NCBI RefSeq assembly: GCF_019599185.1
Contig: NZ_JAIEUL010000002.1
Location: 1 to 64,000 of the forward strand
DNA: 64,000 nucleotides
Direction: 5' to 3'
DNA from: Cryobacterium inferilacus
Lineage (GTDB): Bacteria; Actinomycetota; Actinomycetes; Actinomycetales; Microbacteriaceae
A model generated the notes under the pieces. It had not been told where the DNA came from, made no database searches, and saw only the letters and a list, made by a program, of their open reading frames with translations. The stretch's first letter is position 1; each line of letters begins with the position of its first letter. Both the position numbers and the translations under genes were made by a program. Of the stretch, positions 1-10,246 are shown in pieces.

Positions 1-696
1 CAGAGCGCCCGCCCGGTCGTTCCCACCAAGCGCGGAGCGCGAACGCCCCGGGACACTCCGGTGCTGATCGCGACCGGCCCGGGCCAGGTGTGGTCGTGGG
101 ACATCACCGACCTGCGCTGCCCGTGGCGGGGCAAAGCATTCAAGGCGTACTCGATCATCGACATTTACTCCCGCAAGATCATGGGCTCCCGCGTCGAGGA
201 CCGCGAGAGTGACGACTTCGCGGTGGACATGTTCAAGACCGCATTCGAACTCCACGGCAGGCCTGAGTTCGTCCACGCGGACAACGGATCCGCGATGCGC
301 TCCAACAAACTCGCCGATCTCCTCGTGGCACATAAGGTCGCCAAGACCCACAACCGGCCCTACGTCTCTAACGACAACCCGTTCTCCGAGTCCGAGTTCC
401 GCACCATGAAGTACCGGCCCAACTACCCCGGCACCTTCGAGACACTCGAAGCCGCACGCGAGCACCTCGCCGACTACGTGCCCTGGTACAACACGAACCA
501 CCGGCACTCCGGCATCGCGTTGTTCTCACCCCAGCAAGTCCACGACGGCACCTGGCGCCACACGCACCGCATCCGCGACCGCGCCCTGCAGCGCTATCAC
601 CGCAAGCACCCTGAACGATTCCGCGCCCGACCGACAACACCCGCACCCGCCGGCACAGTCGGCATCAACATCCCCAAAGAAACCGTCAATATCTAA
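1..696 (+). CDS. IS3-family transposase, integrase-core part (5' end outside window)
   Basis: This is the C-terminal, catalytic part of a DDE transposase of the IS3 (rve integrase core) type. The reading frame is open to the left edge, so the N-terminus lies outside the window and the first ATG or GTG seen is not necessarily the start. The three acidic positions are visible: Asp in WSWDIT, Asp in HADNGS and Glu in the SESEFRTMKY context. The C-terminal WYNTNHRHSGI segment is typical of the family. A short basic, proline-rich tail ends at the TAA. An upstream orfA with programmed frameshifting would be expected but cannot be seen. Confidence 0.9.
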   Translation, partial: QSARPVVPTKRGARTPRDTPVLIATGPGQVWSWDITDLRCPWRGKAFKAYSIIDIYSRKIMGSRVEDRESDDFAVDMFKTAFELHGRPEFVHADNGSAMRSNKLADLLVAHKVAKTHNRPYVSNDNPFSESEFRTMKYRPNYPGTFETLEAAREHLADYVPWYNTNHRHSGIALFSPQQVHDGTWRHTHRIRDRALQRYHRKHPERFRARPTTPAPAGTVGINIPKETVNI

Positions 697-4362: not shown

Positions 4363-4410
4363 CGCCAGTAGGCGCCAGCCGACGCCTGAGAACGGCTACG
4401 GAGGTACGAA

Positions 4411-4665
4411 GTGGGCATCAACGACGACGACATCACGACAGACGCGCAGGTTCCCGGCGAGGGTACCGCTGACGGCGGGGCCAACCCCGACGGACACGAC
4501 GGCGGTGCCGACGGCGCCGCCGACGCCGGTGAAGGCACCGCAGACGGGGGCGCCAACCCCGAGGGCCACGACGGCGGAGCAGACGGCTCGGCGTCGGAGG
4601 AGGGCGTCGCCGACGGCGGCGCGAACGCCGACGGGCACGACGGCGGCGCCGACGGATCGGCCTGA
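4411..4665 (+). CDS. Asp/Gly-rich triple-repeat peptide, candidate modified-peptide precursor
   Basis: The 84-residue acidic peptide has a short 16-residue leader-like N-terminus (MGINDDDITTDAQVPG) followed by three near-identical repeats at residues 17-40, 41-63 and 64-84. Each repeat contains ADGGAN, one or two variable residues and then GHDGGADG. Each has one His and many Asp and Gly, with no Cys, no aromatic and almost no hydrophobic residue. GTG 4411 is preceded by GGAGG (4400-4404). The stop TGA shares a base with the ATG of the JmjC gene, so translation is coupled. The architecture (short leader, repeated core, downstream oxygenase) suggests a substrate for post-translational hydroxylation. 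That is inference. It could instead be a metal-binding or structural peptide. Confidence 0.75.
   Translation: MGINDDDITTDAQVPGEGTADGGANPDGHDGGADGAADAGEGTADGGANPEGHDGGADGSASEEGVADGGANADGHDGGADGSA
4459..4662 (+). repeat. Three in-frame tandem repeats of 21-24 codons
   Basis: The repeats encode EG(T or V)ADGGAN followed by GHDGGADG and a short spacer. Synonymous differences between copies are frequent while the peptide is nearly constant, which argues that the peptide sequence itself is under selection. Confidence 0.85.
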
Positions 4666-5903
4666 TGCCGGGCGACGAGCGCGGGTCGGCTGACCGACCC
4701 GCGCTCGCGCGCCTGCTCGCCGGTTCGCCGCAGGACTTCGCCACCGAGAACTGGGCGAACAGCGCCCTGTTCGCCAGGGCGGCCGAGCTGCCAGGCGGAT
4801 TCACCGACCTGTTCACCGCCGACGCCGTCGACGAGCTCGTCACCCGGCGCGGCCTGCGCACCCCGTTCGTGCGGATGGCCAACGAGGGCTCGGTGCTGAA
4901 CGCCGCCAGGTACACCGCCCCCGGTGGTTTCGGCGCCGAGATCGGCGACCAGGTGAGCGCGGACAAGGTGCTCGACGAATTCGCCGCTGGGGCCACCCTG
5001 GTGCTGCAGGGCCTGCACCGCACCTGGACCCCGCTGGCCGAATTCACCCGGCAACTGGTGGCCGACCTGGGCCACCCGGTGCAGGTGAACGCATACATCA
5101 CCCCGGCGTCAGCGCGCGGCTTCGACCCGCACTACGACGTGCACGACGTCTTCGTGATCCAGATCGCCGGCCAGAAACGCTGGCGCATCCACCCGCCCGT
5201 GCACACCGACCCGCTCCGCAGCCAACCCTGGGACGACCACCGCGCCGAGGTCGCCCTGGCCGCCGAGCAGCGCCCGCAGATCGAGGAGACCTTCAGCCCG
5301 GGTGACGTGCTCTACCTGCCGCGCGGCTGGATCCACTCGGCAACCGCTCTCGGTGGCACCTCGATCCACCTCACCATCGGCGTCGCCGCGCTCACCCGCC
5401 ACGACGTGTTGCGCGAGGTGTTGGCGCGGGCAGAGACCGCCGACACCCTGCGCACCGCTCTGCCGCTCGGCATCGACCTGGCCGATCCCACCGTCGTCGC
5501 CGCTCTGGTCGCCGAGGCCGTGAACGATCTGGCGGAGTTCAGTCGGTCAGACCCCGGACAGGCCACGACTGTCGCGGCCCGGCTGGCCAGCCGGGTGCGT
5601 GACTCGACCCGCCCGGAGCCGATCGCGCCCCTGGCCACCGTCAACAGCGCCGCCGCGCTGCACGAGGCGACCACCCTGAGCCTGCGCCACGGGCTCTCCG
5701 CCCGGCTGGTCGACGACGGCTCCCGAGTGCGGCTGATGCTGCCGGGCAAGACGGTCGAGCTGCCCGCCGAAGCGCGAGACGCCCTGACCGCCGTGCTCAC
5801 CGGCGACACCGTGCGGGCCGGGGACCTGCCCGGCCTCGATCCCGCCTCCGCCCTCGTCGTGGCTCGGCGCCTGGTGCGCGAGGGCGTACTGGTCGTGCGG
5901 TGA
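4665..5903 (+). CDS. JmjC/cupin-4 family Fe(II)/2-oxoglutarate-dependent oxygenase
   Basis: The 412-residue protein carries a JmjC-like double-stranded beta-helix. The metal triad is visible as H156-Y-D158 (in DPHYDVHD) and the distal H224 in LPRGWIHSA. The QIAGQKRW strand at 167-173 is typical of the cupin-4/ROX group that hydroxylates Arg or His in ribosomal proteins. A C-terminal region (about 330-412) resembles the winged-helix domain of those enzymes. It starts one base inside the stop of the repeat peptide and overlaps the next gene by four bases, so all three genes are translationally coupled. The natural inference is that the upstream repeat peptide is its substrate. A ribosomal protein substrate is the main alternative. 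Confidence 0.88.
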   Translation: MPGDERGSADRPALARLLAGSPQDFATENWANSALFARAAELPGGFTDLFTADAVDELVTRRGLRTPFVRMANEGSVLNAARYTAPGGFGAEIGDQVSADKVLDEFAAGATLVLQGLHRTWTPLAEFTRQLVADLGHPVQVNAYITPASARGFDPHYDVHDVFVIQIAGQKRWRIHPPVHTDPLRSQPWDDHRAEVALAAEQRPQIEETFSPGDVLYLPRGWIHSATALGGTSIHLTIGVAALTRHDVLREVLARAETADTLRTALPLGIDLADPTVVAALVAEAVNDLAEFSRSDPGQATTVAARLASRVRDSTRPEPIAPLATVNSAAALHEATTLSLRHGLSARLVDDGSRVRLMLPGKTVELPAEARDALTAVLTGDTVRAGDLPGLDPASALVVARRLVREGVLVVR

Positions 5904-6826
5904 CCGGCGCGCACCCGCCAGACGGCCCGGCCCCGGGGTGGCTGCCGTGCAGCGACCGCTCGGTCGAGCGCGACGATCCCCTCGAGGGCACCGCCGGCTA
6001 CGGCGAACGCTGGTTCCTCGTCGAGATCGACGGGGCCTGGGGCGCCCACGCCTTCCTGCAGTCCCAGCTCGATCCGGCACTCGGACGCCGACTGGTCCGG
6101 CGCATCGAGGGTGCGGGCATCCGCCCGTTGGCGATTCGCCGTACCGGACGCACGGCAGACCAGCGGCGTAATCAATCGACCTGGCGGTGGGCGGCCGTGG
6201 ACGCCAGGCCGGGGCACGAGTCCGTGCACTGGGGATCGGTCGATGACCCCGCCGACCTGATGACGGTGCCGCTGGACGGATCCACCGGCGAGTTGTCGAC
6301 CGAGCCGGTGATCTGCGTCTGCACCCACGCCCGCCATGATCAGTGTTGCGCCGTGAAGGGGCGCCCGGTGGTCACCGCGCTCGCTCGGGAGCATCGACGC
6401 GCCACCTGGGAGTGCTCGCATCTGGGCGGCGACCGGTTCGCCGCCACCCTGATCCTGTTCCCGCACGGCCTGTACTACGGCAGGGTGACCGGGGCGGATG
6501 CGCCAGGTCTCGTCGACGCCTACCGTCACGGTCTCATCGAGCCGCGCTGGTTCAGGGGCCGCAGCGCCCTGCCCAATGTGGTGCAGGCGGCCGAGGCATT
6601 CGCCAGGGCCGACCGCGGTGACAACCAGCTGCACGCCTTCCAGTTCGCCTCCTGGACCGAGTCAGGGTCGGTGCACACCGTGCTCTTCACCCACGGCGGC
6701 GAACCCGTCGCGGTTCGCTTGGCGGAGACCCTCTCCCCGCCGTTACTCAGCACCTGCGCGGCCACCACGGCGCGGCCGGTGCGGCAGTTCGAGATGCTCT
6801 CGATCGAGCCGGGTGGGCGGCCCTGA
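5900..6826 (+). CDS. Sucrase/ferredoxin-like protein (Suc_Fer, thioredoxin-like [2Fe-2S])
   Basis: The 308-residue protein contains the Suc_Fer thioredoxin-like ferredoxin core. VCTHARHDQCC at residues 140-150 and WECSHLGGDRFA at 170-181 place Cys139, 141, 149, 150 and 172 and His174 where an iron-sulfur cluster or redox centre would sit. The family has no firm biochemical function. GTG 5900 overlaps the preceding TGA. A role as electron donor that keeps the JmjC iron reduced, or reduces the peptide product, fits the coupling but is inference. The C-terminal 80 residues are less conserved-looking and may form a separate domain. Confidence 0.85.
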   Translation: MTGAHPPDGPAPGWLPCSDRSVERDDPLEGTAGYGERWFLVEIDGAWGAHAFLQSQLDPALGRRLVRRIEGAGIRPLAIRRTGRTADQRRNQSTWRWAAVDARPGHESVHWGSVDDPADLMTVPLDGSTGELSTEPVICVCTHARHDQCCAVKGRPVVTALAREHRRATWECSHLGGDRFAATLILFPHGLYYGRVTGADAPGLVDAYRHGLIEPRWFRGRSALPNVVQAAEAFARADRGDNQLHAFQFASWTESGSVHTVLFTHGGEPVAVRLAETLSPPLLSTCAATTARPVRQFEMLSIEPGGRP

Positions 6827-7039: not shown

Positions 7040-9307
7040 ATGACCGTCACAGATGGCATCAGAAGCGACCAGCGTGGACCCGCAGAAAGCGGCCCCGCCG
7101 AATTCGTCAGCGGCCCGTGGCAGGACTCGATCAACCTGCGCGACTTCATCCAGCGCAACTACACCCCGTACCTGGGCGACGCGAGCTTCCTCGCCGGCGC
7201 CACCGAGCGCACCACCGGCGTCTGGGCCAAGCTGTCCGCGATGTTCCCCGTGGAGCGCGAGAAGGGTGTCTACGACATCGACGCGACGACCCCGTCGTCC
7301 ATCACCGCGCACAAGCCCGGCTACATCGACAAGGACAACGAGGTCATCGTCGGCCTCCAGACCGACGCGCCGCTCAAGCGCGCGATCATGCCCTTCGGCG
7401 GCTGGCGCATGGTCGCCACCTCCCTCGAGACCTACGGCTACCCCGTGTCGCCCGAACTCGAAACGATCTTCACCGACTACCGCAAGACCCACAACACCGC
7501 GGTCTTCGACGTCTACCCTCCCGGCGTGCGCCGTGCGCGCAGCAGCCACCTGATCACCGGCCTGCCGGATGCCTACGGCCGTGGCCGCATCATCGGTGAC
7601 TACCGTCGTGTTGCCCTCTACGGCATCGACGCCCTGATTGCCGGCAAGAAGAACGACCGCGCCGAGCTGGACATGGAGCCCTCGACCGAGGACATCATCC
7701 GTGCCCGCGAGGAGAACTCGGAGCAGATCCGGGCCCTCAAGGAACTCGCTCAGATGGCCGCCAGCTACGGCTTCGACATCTCCAAGCCGGCCAACACGGC
7801 CAAGGAAGCCATCCAGTGGCTGTACTTCGCCTACCTCGGTGCGGTCAAGGAGCAGAACGGTGCGGCAATGTCGTTCGGCCGCAACGCGGCCTTCCTCGAC
7901 GCCTACATCGAGCGCGACCTCGCCGCAGGCACCCTGACGGAAGAGGGCGCCCAGGAGCTCATCGACGACCTGGTCATCAAGCTGCGCATCGTGCGGTTCC
8001 TCCGCACCCCGGAGTACGACGAGATCTTCGCCGGAGACCCCACCTGGGTCACCGAGTCGCTCGCCGGCATCGGTGAAGACGGTCGCCCGCTCGTCACCAA
8101 GACCGCGTTCCGCTTCCTGCAGACCCTGTACAACGTGGGCCCCGCACCCGAGCCGAACCTGACCGTGCTGTGGAGCGACAAGCTCCCCGAGGGCTTCAAG
8201 CGTTTCTGCGCCCAGGTCTCGATCGACACGTCCGCCATCCAGTACGAGTCCGACGAGCTCATCCGCAACGAGATGGGTGACGACGCCGCCATCGCGTGCT
8301 GCGTCTCCCCGATGCGGGTCGGCAAGCAGATGCAGTTCTTCGGAGCCCGCGTCAACGCCGTCAAGGCGCTGCTGTACTCGATCAACGGCGGTAAGGACGA
8401 GGTGTCCGGTAAGCAGATCGCGCCGGCCACCGCGCCGAACACCGACGAGATCCTCGACTACGAGACCGTCTTCCCGGCCTACCTCGAGACCCTCGAGTGG
8501 CTTGCAGAGACCTACGTCACCGCACTGAACTGCATTCACTACATGCACGACAAGTACGCGTACGAGCGTCTCGAGATGGCACTGCACGACAAGGAAATCA
8601 TCCGCACCCTCGCCTGCGGCATCGCCGGCCTGAGCGTGGTTGCCGACTCGCTGTCCGCCATCAAGTACGCCAAGGTGCGCCCGGTTCGCGACGAGACCGG
8701 CCTGGTCGTCGACTACACCGTCGAAGGCGAATTCCCCACCTTCGGTAACGACGACGACAAGGTCGACGCCATCGCGGTCGACGTCATGGAACGCTTCATG
8801 ACGATGATTCGCAAGCACCCGACCTACCGTGACGCCATCCACACCCAGTCGATCCTGACGATCACGTCCAACGTGGTCTACGGCAAGGCCACCGGCAACA
8901 CGCCCGATGGTCGCCGCAAGGGTGAGCCGTTCGCACCGGGTGCCAACCCGATGAACGGCCGCGACACGCACGGCATGCTCGCGTCGGCACTCAGTGTCGC
9001 CAAGCTTCCGTACAGCGAAGCGCAGGACGGCATCTCGCTGACCAACACGGTTGTTCCGAGCGGCCTGGGCCACACCAAGGACGAGCAGATCACCAGCCTG
9101 GTCGGCCTGCTCGACGCGTTCACGTCGGCCACCGGTTACCACCTGAACGTCAACGTGCTCAATAAAGAGACGCTCGAAGACGCGATGCTGCACCCGGAGA
9201 ACTACCCGCAGCTGACCATCCGAGTTTCCGGCTACGCCGTGAACTTCGTTCGCCTCACCCGCGAGCAGCAGATGGATGTCATCAGCCGCACGTTCCACTC
9301 GCACTAA
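7040..9307 (+). CDS. pflB: Formate C-acetyltransferase (pyruvate formate-lyase)
   Basis: The 755-residue glycyl radical enzyme converts pyruvate and CoA to acetyl-CoA and formate under anoxic conditions in the cytoplasm. The thiyl pair is Cys420-Cys421 in [10 protein letters not shown] and the radical glycine is Gly731 in RVSGYAVNF, at the same places as in the Escherichia coli enzyme and with nearly the same total length. ATG 7040 has a strong AAAGGAGA site; the in-frame upstream extension to 6956 has none. The activase gene follows after 45 bases. The DosR-type box and a 200-base leader imply oxygen- or redox-dependent control. An unusual enzyme for organisms usually described as aerobic. 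Confidence 0.97.
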
Positions 9308-9328
9308 AGAAACACCCCACACATGACC

Positions 9329-9388
9329 GGCAACGCTAGGTAGGACGAGACCATGACCGCGATCAACCTCGGCTTCCCTAGCGTTGCC
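9329..9388 (+). promoter_or_regulatory. Inverted repeat enclosing the pflA ribosome-binding site and start
   Basis: GGCAACGCTAGG (9329-9340) is perfectly complementary to CCTAGCGTTGCC (9377-9388). The 36-base loop contains the AGGACGAG ribosome-binding site and the ATG of pflA. In the mRNA this would form a 12-bp stem around the translation start, so it may modulate pflA translation relative to pflB or mark a processing site. Confidence 0.6.
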
Positions 9389-10246
9389 TGTCCTGTAGTA
9401 GAACTTTCCGGAGAGCACGTCGACCTGTCGGCGCCCGTCTCCGATGACGTCAGCGCCCTCACCGACGCCGACCGCAAGGCCGAGCTGCACACGCTGGAAA
9501 TGAAGGCGATCCGCGAGGGCACCGTCGCCAGTGTGCACTCCTGGGAGCTCGTGACGGCCGTGGACGGCCCCGGCACCCGCATGACCCTGTTCCTCTCCGG
9601 CTGCCTGCTGCGCTGCCAGTACTGCCACAACCCGGACACCTGGAAGATGCGTGACGGTCTCGTCACGCCCATCGACGAACTGGTCGCCAGGATGACCCGC
9701 TACCTCGGCGTCTTCAAGGCCACCAACGGCGGCCTCACCATCTCCGGCGGAGAGCCGCTGATGCAGCCCGCGTTTGTCAAGCGGATGTTCAAGGAGGCGC
9801 ATGCCCTCGGCGTGCACACCACCCTGGACACCTCCGGCTACCTCGGTAAGAGCGCCTCGGACGAGATGCTCGACAACATCGACCTCGTGCTGCTCGACGT
9901 GAAGTCCGGCCTGCCGGAGACCTACAAGAAGGTCACCGGCCGGGAACTCGCGCCGACGATCGCGTTCGGTGATCGCCTCGCCGAGCGCAACATCCCGGTC
10001 TGGGTTCGCTTCGTGCTCGTTCCCGGACTCACCGACGCCGTCGACAACGTCGAGGCCGTCGTGGACATCGTCAAGAGCTGGCCCAACGTGCAGCGCGTCG
10101 AGGTGCTGCCCTTCCACCAGATGGGCGAAGACAAATGGGATCGCCTGAGCATCCCGTACCCGCTGCACGGCGTGCACCCGCCGGAGAACGACCTGCTCGC
10201 GCGTGTGAAGGGTCAGTTCGAGGCCAGGGGACTGACCGTTTTCTAG
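9353..10246 (+). CDS. pflA: Pyruvate formate-lyase 1-activating enzyme (radical SAM)
   Basis: The 297-residue protein has the radical SAM triad C84-x3-C88-x2-C91 in SGCLLRCQYCHNP, preceded by VDGPGTRMTLFL. This is the activase signature. It installs the glycyl radical on PflB using S-adenosylmethionine and a [4Fe-4S] cluster. The N-terminus is about 48 residues longer than in Escherichia coli PflA. Met50 (9500) would give the standard length but lacks a good ribosome-binding site, and the extension from about 9410 has the high third-position GC of coding DNA. The first 50 bases are poorer in GC at codon position three and overlap the inverted repeat, so the exact start is uncertain. Confidence 0.93.
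   Translation: MTAINLGFPSVACPVVELSGEHVDLSAPVSDDVSALTDADRKAELHTLEMKAIREGTVASVHSWELVTAVDGPGTRMTLFLSGCLLRCQYCHNPDTWKMRDGLVTPIDELVARMTRYLGVFKATNGGLTISGGEPLMQPAFVKRMFKEAHALGVHTTLDTSGYLGKSASDEMLDNIDLVLLDVKSGLPETYKKVTGRELAPTIAFGDRLAERNIPVWVRFVLVPGLTDAVDNVEAVVDIVKSWPNVQRVEVLPFHQMGEDKWDRLSIPYPLHGVHPPENDLLARVKGQFEARGLTVF

What the first reader, a model, noticed from the sequence alone, without database searches (positions are those of the whole stretch)
4411..6826. Candidate undescribed peptide-modification operon: triple-repeat Asp/Gly/His peptide + JmjC oxygenase + thioredoxin-like ferredoxin
Seen: three genes with stop/start overlaps of one and four bases. The first encodes an 84-residue peptide with a short leader-like start and three copies of an ADGGAN / GHDGGADG repeat. 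The second has an intact HxD...H iron site. The third has a conserved Cys-rich thioredoxin-like core. Known: cupin-4/JmjC enzymes hydroxylate Arg or His side chains of proteins. Inference: the oxygenase hydroxylates a residue (His, Asp, Asn or Pro) in each repeat and the ferredoxin-like protein supplies electrons or processes the product. Synonymous drift between the repeats with a constant peptide supports selection on the peptide.
Basis: partly seen in the sequence, partly recalled or inferred. Interest (0 to 1): 0.85.

Follow-up and report, generated by a model that had tools for sequence, protein, structure and literature searches.

The report
Repeat peptide paired with peptide hydroxylase
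Many actinobacteria carry a small gene for an aspartate-rich repeat peptide next to an oxygen-using enzyme that probably adds hydroxyl groups to it, a widespread pairing for which I found no description.

Summary
In detail: an 84-aa peptide with three 20-aa repeats, a JmjC_2 oxygenase and a Suc_Fer-like protein, overlapping by 1 and 4 bases. Relatives make the pairing much stronger. Of 168 distinct JmjC proteins compared, all 155 with profile score 190 or more have an Asp-rich peptide directly upstream (153 by script, 2 by eye; rule fires at 1.7-2.2% of control sites); nearly all are repetitive. Searching by peptide alone reached a JmjC gene in 39 of 39 loci. The family spans deep Actinomycetota branches. 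The His suggested by the nearest solved enzymes (His hydroxylases NO66 and MINA53) is absent from 6 of 112 near peptides, in at least three places on the tree, and from 28 of 39 more distant ones; Asp is repeated throughout. Most peptides share a leader motif (window: INDDDITT), and the enzyme's C-terminal domain resembles RiPP recognition elements. Best reading: a minimal RiPP-like system whose enzyme binds the leader and beta-hydroxylates Asp in each repeat. Product, target residue and role are not shown; the Suc_Fer gene is usual but dispensable. Ten literature searches found no description; one relevant 2025 paper could not be read.

The parts
4400..4404 (+). Shine-Dalgarno-like GGAGG, 6 bases before the GTG start
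   Evidence: sequence
4411..4665 (+). Asp/Gly-rich repeat peptide, 84 aa, proposed precursor
   Evidence: purifying selection
4417..4440 (+). leader motif INDDDITT, shared as L/I/V-x-D/E-D/E-D/E-I/M-x-T/S by most of the family
   Evidence: regular expression found in 95 of 115 near and 34 of 39 distant peptides
4459..4518 (+). repeat 1, EGTADGGANPDGHDGGADGA
4531..4590 (+). repeat 2, EGTADGGANPEGHDGGADGS
4600..4659 (+). repeat 3, EGVADGGANADGHDGGADGS
4665..5903 (+). JmjC_2 Fe(II)/2-oxoglutarate oxygenase, 412 aa, fold of ribosomal oxygenase NO66
   Evidence: Pfam; model pLDDT 95; NO66 Z 30.3
5130..5138 (+). H156-x-D158 of the iron site (third ligand H224 at 5334-5336)
   Evidence: invariant in the 55-row alignment
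5589..5900 (+). C-terminal winged-helix domain, RRE-like (residues 309-412)
   Evidence: model
5900..6826 (+). Suc_Fer-like (thioredoxin-like ferredoxin) protein, 308 aa; C17, C141, C149, C150, H174 conserved
   Evidence: Pfam; 120 of 120 rows each

Best explanation
The locus is a minimal RiPP-like unit. The peptide has a short recognition leader (INDDDITT) and a repetitive core. The C-terminal RRE-like domain of the JmjC enzyme binds the leader and feeds the repeats to the Fe(II)/2-oxoglutarate site, which hydroxylates aspartate side chains (beta-hydroxyaspartate) in the repeats. The Suc_Fer-like [2Fe-2S] protein, where present, probably keeps iron reduced or acts on the modified peptide. The product is likely an intracellular polyanionic, metal-binding peptide, since no exporter or protease gene is conserved with it and the peptide begins with an acidic, not a signal-like, stretch. 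Shown: conserved gene pairing, purifying selection, leader motif, intact active-site residues, NO66-like predicted fold, RRE-like predicted C-terminal domain. Inferred: substrate relationship, Asp as target, leader binding, product function.
For: Pairing: 155 of 155 compared enzymes scoring 190 or more (two corrected) against 30 of 1803 random positions and 8 of 366 other gene starts, none of the DGG type; peptide-only search reached a JmjC in 39 of 39 loci from 30 genomes. Distant peptides are Asp repeats, 28 of 39 without any His in the core. In 273 HDGG-type units both core Asp are kept in 273 and the His in 251 (units were chosen by resemblance to the consensus). Peptides without HDG (three Kribbella, Actinomycetospora, L035, L063) need at least three changes on the tree. 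Fe and 2OG residues H156, D158, H224, K171, N142, Y144, H235 are invariant in 55 rows and map on NO66 numbering given in PMC8667043. NO66 Z 30.3 over residues 7-412. C-terminal domain: after the ribosomal oxygenases the list is mostly RREs, with PqqD Z 7.0, TbiB1 with leader 6.8, PbtF RRE 6.4, ThcOx 6.3, TigE 6.1, McbB 6.0, MccB 5.8, lasso B1 5.4. PMC12710340 (section 6 read) reports RRE-like domains fused to JmjC PF08007, with bacterial homologues in RiPP-like contexts.
Against: No modification has been observed. The nearest characterised relatives hydroxylate His or Arg of ribosomal proteins, and HDG is present in 106 of 112 near peptides, so His could be the target in this branch; 11 of 39 distant peptides also have some His, in L040, L213 and L228 inside the repeats. 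RRE matches have Z 5 to 7, a range that the tool warns may mean only a common arrangement, and Rv2067c (7.3) and GdmN (6.7) score alike. The leader pattern is not found in 20 of 115 near peptides: two are cut off, one fits by eye, most of the rest form a sub-branch. L191 has an acidic but hardly repetitive peptide. No protease or exporter is conserved nearby. Conservation of Asp could reflect recognition or metal binding rather than hydroxylation.
Confidence: 0.57

Rival explanations
1. The enzyme hydroxylates the single His of each HDGG repeat, as NO66 and MINA53 hydroxylate ribosomal His; branches without His have changed target.
For: Nearest solved relatives are the His hydroxylases; their known substrates are Gly-rich near the His (PMC8667043 passage); His present in 251 of 273 units; some His in 11 of 39 distant peptides.
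Against: HDG is missing in six near peptides, in at least three places on the tree, and 28 of 39 distant cores have no His, although N142 and Y144 are invariant.
Confidence: 0.22
2. The peptide is not a substrate but a partner: an acidic chaperone, metal buffer or regulator of an enzyme whose substrate is elsewhere, for example a ribosomal protein.
For: Ribosomal oxygenase fold; no conserved protease or exporter; the only JmjC_2 gene of the genome.
Against: Leader-plus-repeat architecture with a varying number of repeats (3 to 20 DGG per near peptide), RRE-like domain, and other short peptides ending GRSDGND or GKGDGND beside more distant Streptomyces JmjC genes.
Confidence: 0.15
3. The enzyme does oxidative chemistry other than simple hydroxylation on the peptide (cross-link, dehydrogenation, backbone cleavage).
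For: 2OG enzymes doing macrocyclisation in RiPPs are cited (Xia et al. 2025, title only); Asp-Gly is a reactive dipeptide (general knowledge).
Against: The JmjC/cupin enzymes characterised in the RiPP papers seen are hydroxylases (PbsQ and BipG, predicted or shown on Orn; passages).
Confidence: 0.06

Closest known systems
NO66 / MINA53 ribosomal histidyl hydroxylases (JmjC_2, PF08007)
   Same: Predicted fold over the whole length (Z 30.3 and 27.9), Fe and 2OG residues, NxYxTP motif, C-terminal winged-helix domain
   Different: 24 and 22% identity; stands beside its own repeat-peptide gene; the residue repeated throughout the family is Asp, not His
YcfD uL16 arginyl hydroxylase
   Same: Same Pfam family and domain order (Z 19.3)
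   Different: Weaker match; whether YcfD genes have peptide neighbours was not examined
JmjC/cupin tailoring hydroxylases of biphenomycin-type RiPPs (PbsQ, BipG; passages of PMC12257519 and PMC12707348)
   Same: JmjC-type enzyme hydroxylating a precursor peptide
   Different: There it is one of several enzymes and acts on Orn; here it is the only recognised modifying enzyme and the core is an Asp repeat
Asp beta-hydroxylation in RiPPs by MNIO, HExxH or other 2OG enzymes (passages of PMC12636437, PMC13060819)
   Same: Proposed product residue, beta-hydroxyaspartate
   Different: Other enzyme families in the cases seen; few Asp residues rather than long repeats
Suc_Fer-like / thioredoxin-like ferredoxins (Apd1, Aim32; recalled)
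   Same: Pfam PF06999, conserved Cys and HxGGD motif
   Different: No PDB sequence match at E 1 or better; role in this operon unknown

Membership tests
RiPP biosynthetic system | Ribosomal precursor with leader and core, conserved beside a modifying enzyme | tested here: met
RiPP biosynthetic system | Post-translational modification of the core shown | not testable with these tools
   needs mass spectrometry
RiPP biosynthetic system | Leader removal or export genes in the cluster (usual, not universal) | tested here: inconclusive
   in 80 loci the only large ORF clusters were the enzyme (74), Suc_Fer (39) and minus-strand ORFs at the Suc_Fer position (14); every other cluster was in 7 loci or fewer (ORF choice by codon GC); proteases elsewhere in the genome are not excluded
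JmjC_2 (PF08007) oxygenase | Profile match above the curated cut-off | tested here: met
   99.5 bits against cut-off 22
JmjC_2 (PF08007) oxygenase | HxD...H iron ligands and 2OG-binding Lys | tested here: met
   H156, D158, H224, K171 invariant in 55 rows
Ribosomal oxygenase (NO66/MINA53 function) | Hydroxylates a ribosomal protein His | not testable with these tools
   fold similarity only
[quoted passage not shown]
   PqqD Z 7.0, rmsd 2.6, 80 aligned; many RREs at Z 5-7, but also some other chains
RiPP recognition element (RRE) | Binds the leader of the precursor | not testable with these tools
   conserved leader motif is compatible
Suc_Fer-like (PF06999) | Profile match above the curated cut-off | tested here: met
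   71.9 bits against 34.9
Suc_Fer-like (PF06999) | Conserved cluster-ligand Cys/His | tested here: inconclusive
   C141, C149, C150, H174 in 120 of 120 rows, but which residues bind iron was not tested

The most novel reading that the evidence does not exclude
An undescribed, phylum-wide class of RiPP-like peptides whose only class-defining enzyme is an RRE-bearing JmjC oxygenase that writes beta-hydroxyaspartate into long Asp repeats, yielding a cytoplasmic poly-hydroxyaspartate peptide that stores or buffers a metal and couples this to oxygen, iron and 2-oxoglutarate; human NO66 and MINA53 would share an origin with such leader-guided peptide oxygenases.
Probability: 0.3. Interest if true: 0.87.

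Novelty: new variant of a known kind. Interest (0 to 1): 0.78.

Why it matters
It would give the JmjC_2 family a genetically encoded peptide substrate in bacteria, name a leader motif that makes the class searchable, and suggest that the winged-helix domain of the human ribosomal oxygenases, whose function is called unclear in a review (PMC6182338 passage), is related to a peptide-recognition domain. The prediction is simple to test by co-expression and mass spectrometry.

Tried and rejected
His as universal target: considered first because of NO66/MINA53, set aside. Iron regulation: a DmdR1/IdeR-type box (consensus recalled) was not enriched in 142 upstream regions (best 7 of 19 mismatches, in two; shuffled best 8), and no common palindrome or 8-mer stood out. 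Link to the desJGH locus of PMC12161575: desG is a penicillin amidase-type gene and the paper's text has no cupin or JmjC (abstract and passages). A recalled label 'BatC' for the peptide: no support. Mobile or phage carriage: JmjC not in the phage records nor in viral contigs (15 pattern matches, none confirmed); peptide query without match in plasmids, though low-complexity filtering may hide it; more distant JmjC genes do occur on Streptomyces plasmids. A shared fourth gene: none; pyruvate formate-lyase is next door only in five of 80 loci, all Cryobacterium.

Rows dropped and limits: for the tally, 229 loci were considered, 226 had a JmjC profile hit, 217 a near-full-length one, and 168 remained after removing identical proteins (153 clusters at 90% identity: 102, 39 and 12 in the three score bands). 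The nine dropped for incomplete matches are L022, L175, L206, L214, L221, L222, L224, L225 and L229: L214 has an Asp-repeat peptide, the sequence of L175, L206 and L222 ends before the peptide region, no Asp-repeat was seen before L221, L224, L225 and L229, L022 was not examined on its own strand; L023 and L024 have no profile hit. The tally includes loci found through the peptide (L025-L063). Of the 155, L191 is hardly repetitive and L230 is cut off inside the peptide. Below score 190 (13 distinct): 1 Asp-repeat, 6 with a ...DGND peptide (4; L147 and L148), 6 with none seen. L051 was mislabelled as lacking His; one search repeats the count with the right label. Distribution outside Actinomycetota was not examined. 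Paper searches found no description; Xia et al. 2025 (doi 10.1021/jacs.5c07332) is not held and unread.

Full report
What is there. The three genes are as described: peptide 4411-4665, JmjC 4665-5903, third gene 5900-6826, with overlaps of one and four bases. The second gene matches Pfam JmjC_2 (E 1.4e-28), the third Suc_Fer-like (9.7e-20), and the peptide nothing. The window is Cryobacterium-like: among the named relatives fetched, the nearest enzymes are from a Cryobacterium MAG (85%) and C. arcticum (80%). The genome holds one JmjC_2 and one Suc_Fer gene, both here.

The peptide is a real gene product. Codon comparison of the window with five Cryobacterium relatives gives dS 0.43-0.71 and dN 0.08-0.13; between the three repeats dS is 0.95 and dN 0.05. 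In a sample of 150 genomes of the family, 20 had a JmjC match; the 16 matches with at least 45% identity (own genome included) all have the peptide directly upstream. Of the other four, L021, L023 and L024 showed none, and L022 was not examined on its own strand.

The pairing holds from both sides. With the peptide profile alone, 21 of 297 order genomes and 12 of 396 phylum genomes matched (three genomes are in both), and all 39 fetched loci carry a JmjC gene beside the peptide. With the enzyme, 80 of 80 named loci (the best 80 of 567 relatives) have a peptide upstream: 76 by a pattern and four, three Kribbella and one Actinomycetospora, by eye. In the tally of 168 distinct near-full-length enzymes, the script finds an Asp-rich or DGG peptide in 115 of 116 with score 450 or more and 38 of 39 with score 190-450. 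The two misses are L083, partly masked but visible, and L163, whose repeats are less Asp-rich and were read by eye. Of these 155, L191 is acidic but hardly repetitive and L230 is cut off inside the peptide region. Below score 190, 1 of 13 has one. At 90% identity the two upper bands are 102 and 39 clusters. The same rule fires at 30 of 1803 random positions and 8 of 366 other gene starts, never with the DGG type.

Which residue. In the branch of the window, 106 of 112 unique peptides have HDG; six do not and four have no His at all. On the tree of 72 enzymes (short search) the six, from three Kribbella, Actinomycetospora, L035 and L063, need at least three changes; the direction of change is not settled. 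In distant branches the peptides read like DGDATDGTDGDA or DADASDADAAD; 28 of 39 have no His in the core, 11 have some, and in L040 (which is of the HDGG type), L213 and L228 the His lies inside the repeats. In 273 repeat units of the HDGG type the two core Asp are kept in 273, the first Asp in 271, His in 251, Asn in 247, Pro in 226 (units were picked by similarity to the consensus). Asp is therefore the common repeated residue. This is an inference from conservation, not a demonstration.

Leader and recognition. An N-terminal motif L/I/V-x-D/E-D/E-D/E-I/M-x-T/S is found by regular expression in 95 of 115 near peptides (three of the strings found are other stretches of the reading frame) and 34 of 39 distant ones; L128, L144 and L170 fit by eye; L081, L125 and L230 are cut off; most of the other misses belong to one part of the tree. 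The AlphaFold model of the enzyme is confident (pLDDT 95) and matches NO66 over residues 7-412 with Z 30.3, rmsd 4.7, 378 aligned, then MINA53 27.9, YxbC 19.6 and YcfD 19.3. The C-terminal domain modelled alone (pLDDT 90.6) matches MINA53 (Z 12.0) and NO66 (10.2), and then a list of mostly RRE-bearing proteins: PqqD 7.0, TbiB1 with leader 6.8, PbtF 6.4, ThcOx 6.3, TigE 6.1, McbB 6.0, MccB 5.8, lasso B1 5.4, TruD 5.3. Rv2067c (7.3) and GdmN (6.7) score alike, and Pfam has no match for this domain that passes its cut-off, so the match alone is not proof. PMC12710340 (abstract, sections 6 and 7 and part of its references read) independently notes RRE-like domains fused to JmjC PF08007 in fish and algae and RiPP-like contexts of bacterial homologues at about 30% identity.

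Active site. H156, D158, H224, K171, N142, Y144, G152, H235 and T237 are invariant in 55 aligned relatives. By the profile alignment with NO66 and the residue numbers in PMC8667043 (passages), T146, G152, K171 and H235 correspond to T330, G336, K355 and H417 of NO66. The enzyme should be active.

Third gene. Suc_Fer lies directly downstream in 67 of 80 named loci. In the larger tally it is present beside 96 of 116 near enzymes (6 more are cut off, 14 lack it) and 31 of 39 distant ones (1 cut off, 7 lack it). It is thus old and usual but dispensable. C17, C141, C149, C150 and H174 are in 120 of 120 rows, with a GGDR motif. Its electron-transfer role is assumed from the family (recalled).

Wider pattern. 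More distant Streptomyces JmjC genes have other short peptides directly upstream, ending GRSDGND or GKGDGND, in two cases with an aldo/keto reductase downstream, and S. clavuligerus has one with an LEPDEIEV leader and an IADxDPxDP core. This suggests that more actinobacterial JmjC_2 enzymes modify peptides.

Judgement. Pairing and selection are shown; a substrate relation is likely (about 0.85 in my estimate); Asp as target about 0.57; a metal-binding role is a guess. The system works like a minimal RiPP pathway; formal membership awaits a demonstrated modification. None of the ten literature searches found it described, but most subscription papers, among them Xia et al. 2025 on 2OG-enzyme macrocyclisation in RiPPs, were not available.

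Noticed in passing
L145 4814-4972, L146 3845-3991, L226, L227, and unannotated ORFs before the JmjC genes of L147 and L148: Streptomyces-type JmjC_2 genes preceded by short peptides that end GRSDGND or GKGDGND, in L145 and L146 followed by an aldo/keto reductase; looks like a second peptide class.
   Followed up: partly
L144 4832-4978: Streptomyces clavuligerus plasmid: 48-aa peptide with LEPDEIEV leader and IADNDP/IADPDP core directly before a cupin (JmjC_2) gene.
   Followed up: partly
   Followed up: no
L228 upstream of the JmjC gene: Distant precursor with two near-identical copies of PTEDDENLDAPGEHSQDTGDE after an ITDNDIT leader, a simple model substrate.
   Followed up: no
window 7040-10246: Pyruvate formate-lyase (PFL-like and Gly_radical) and a radical SAM gene of activating type directly downstream; the lyase is found at this place only in the five Cryobacterium loci of 80.
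   Followed up: partly
window 61-696: Integrase-core (rve) ORF, probably the C-terminal part of an IS3-like transposase, near the window start.
   Followed up: no
L191 upstream of the JmjC gene: An enzyme inside the HDGG clade whose upstream peptide is acidic but hardly repetitive and which lacks Suc_Fer: a possible case of loss or new substrate.
   Followed up: no
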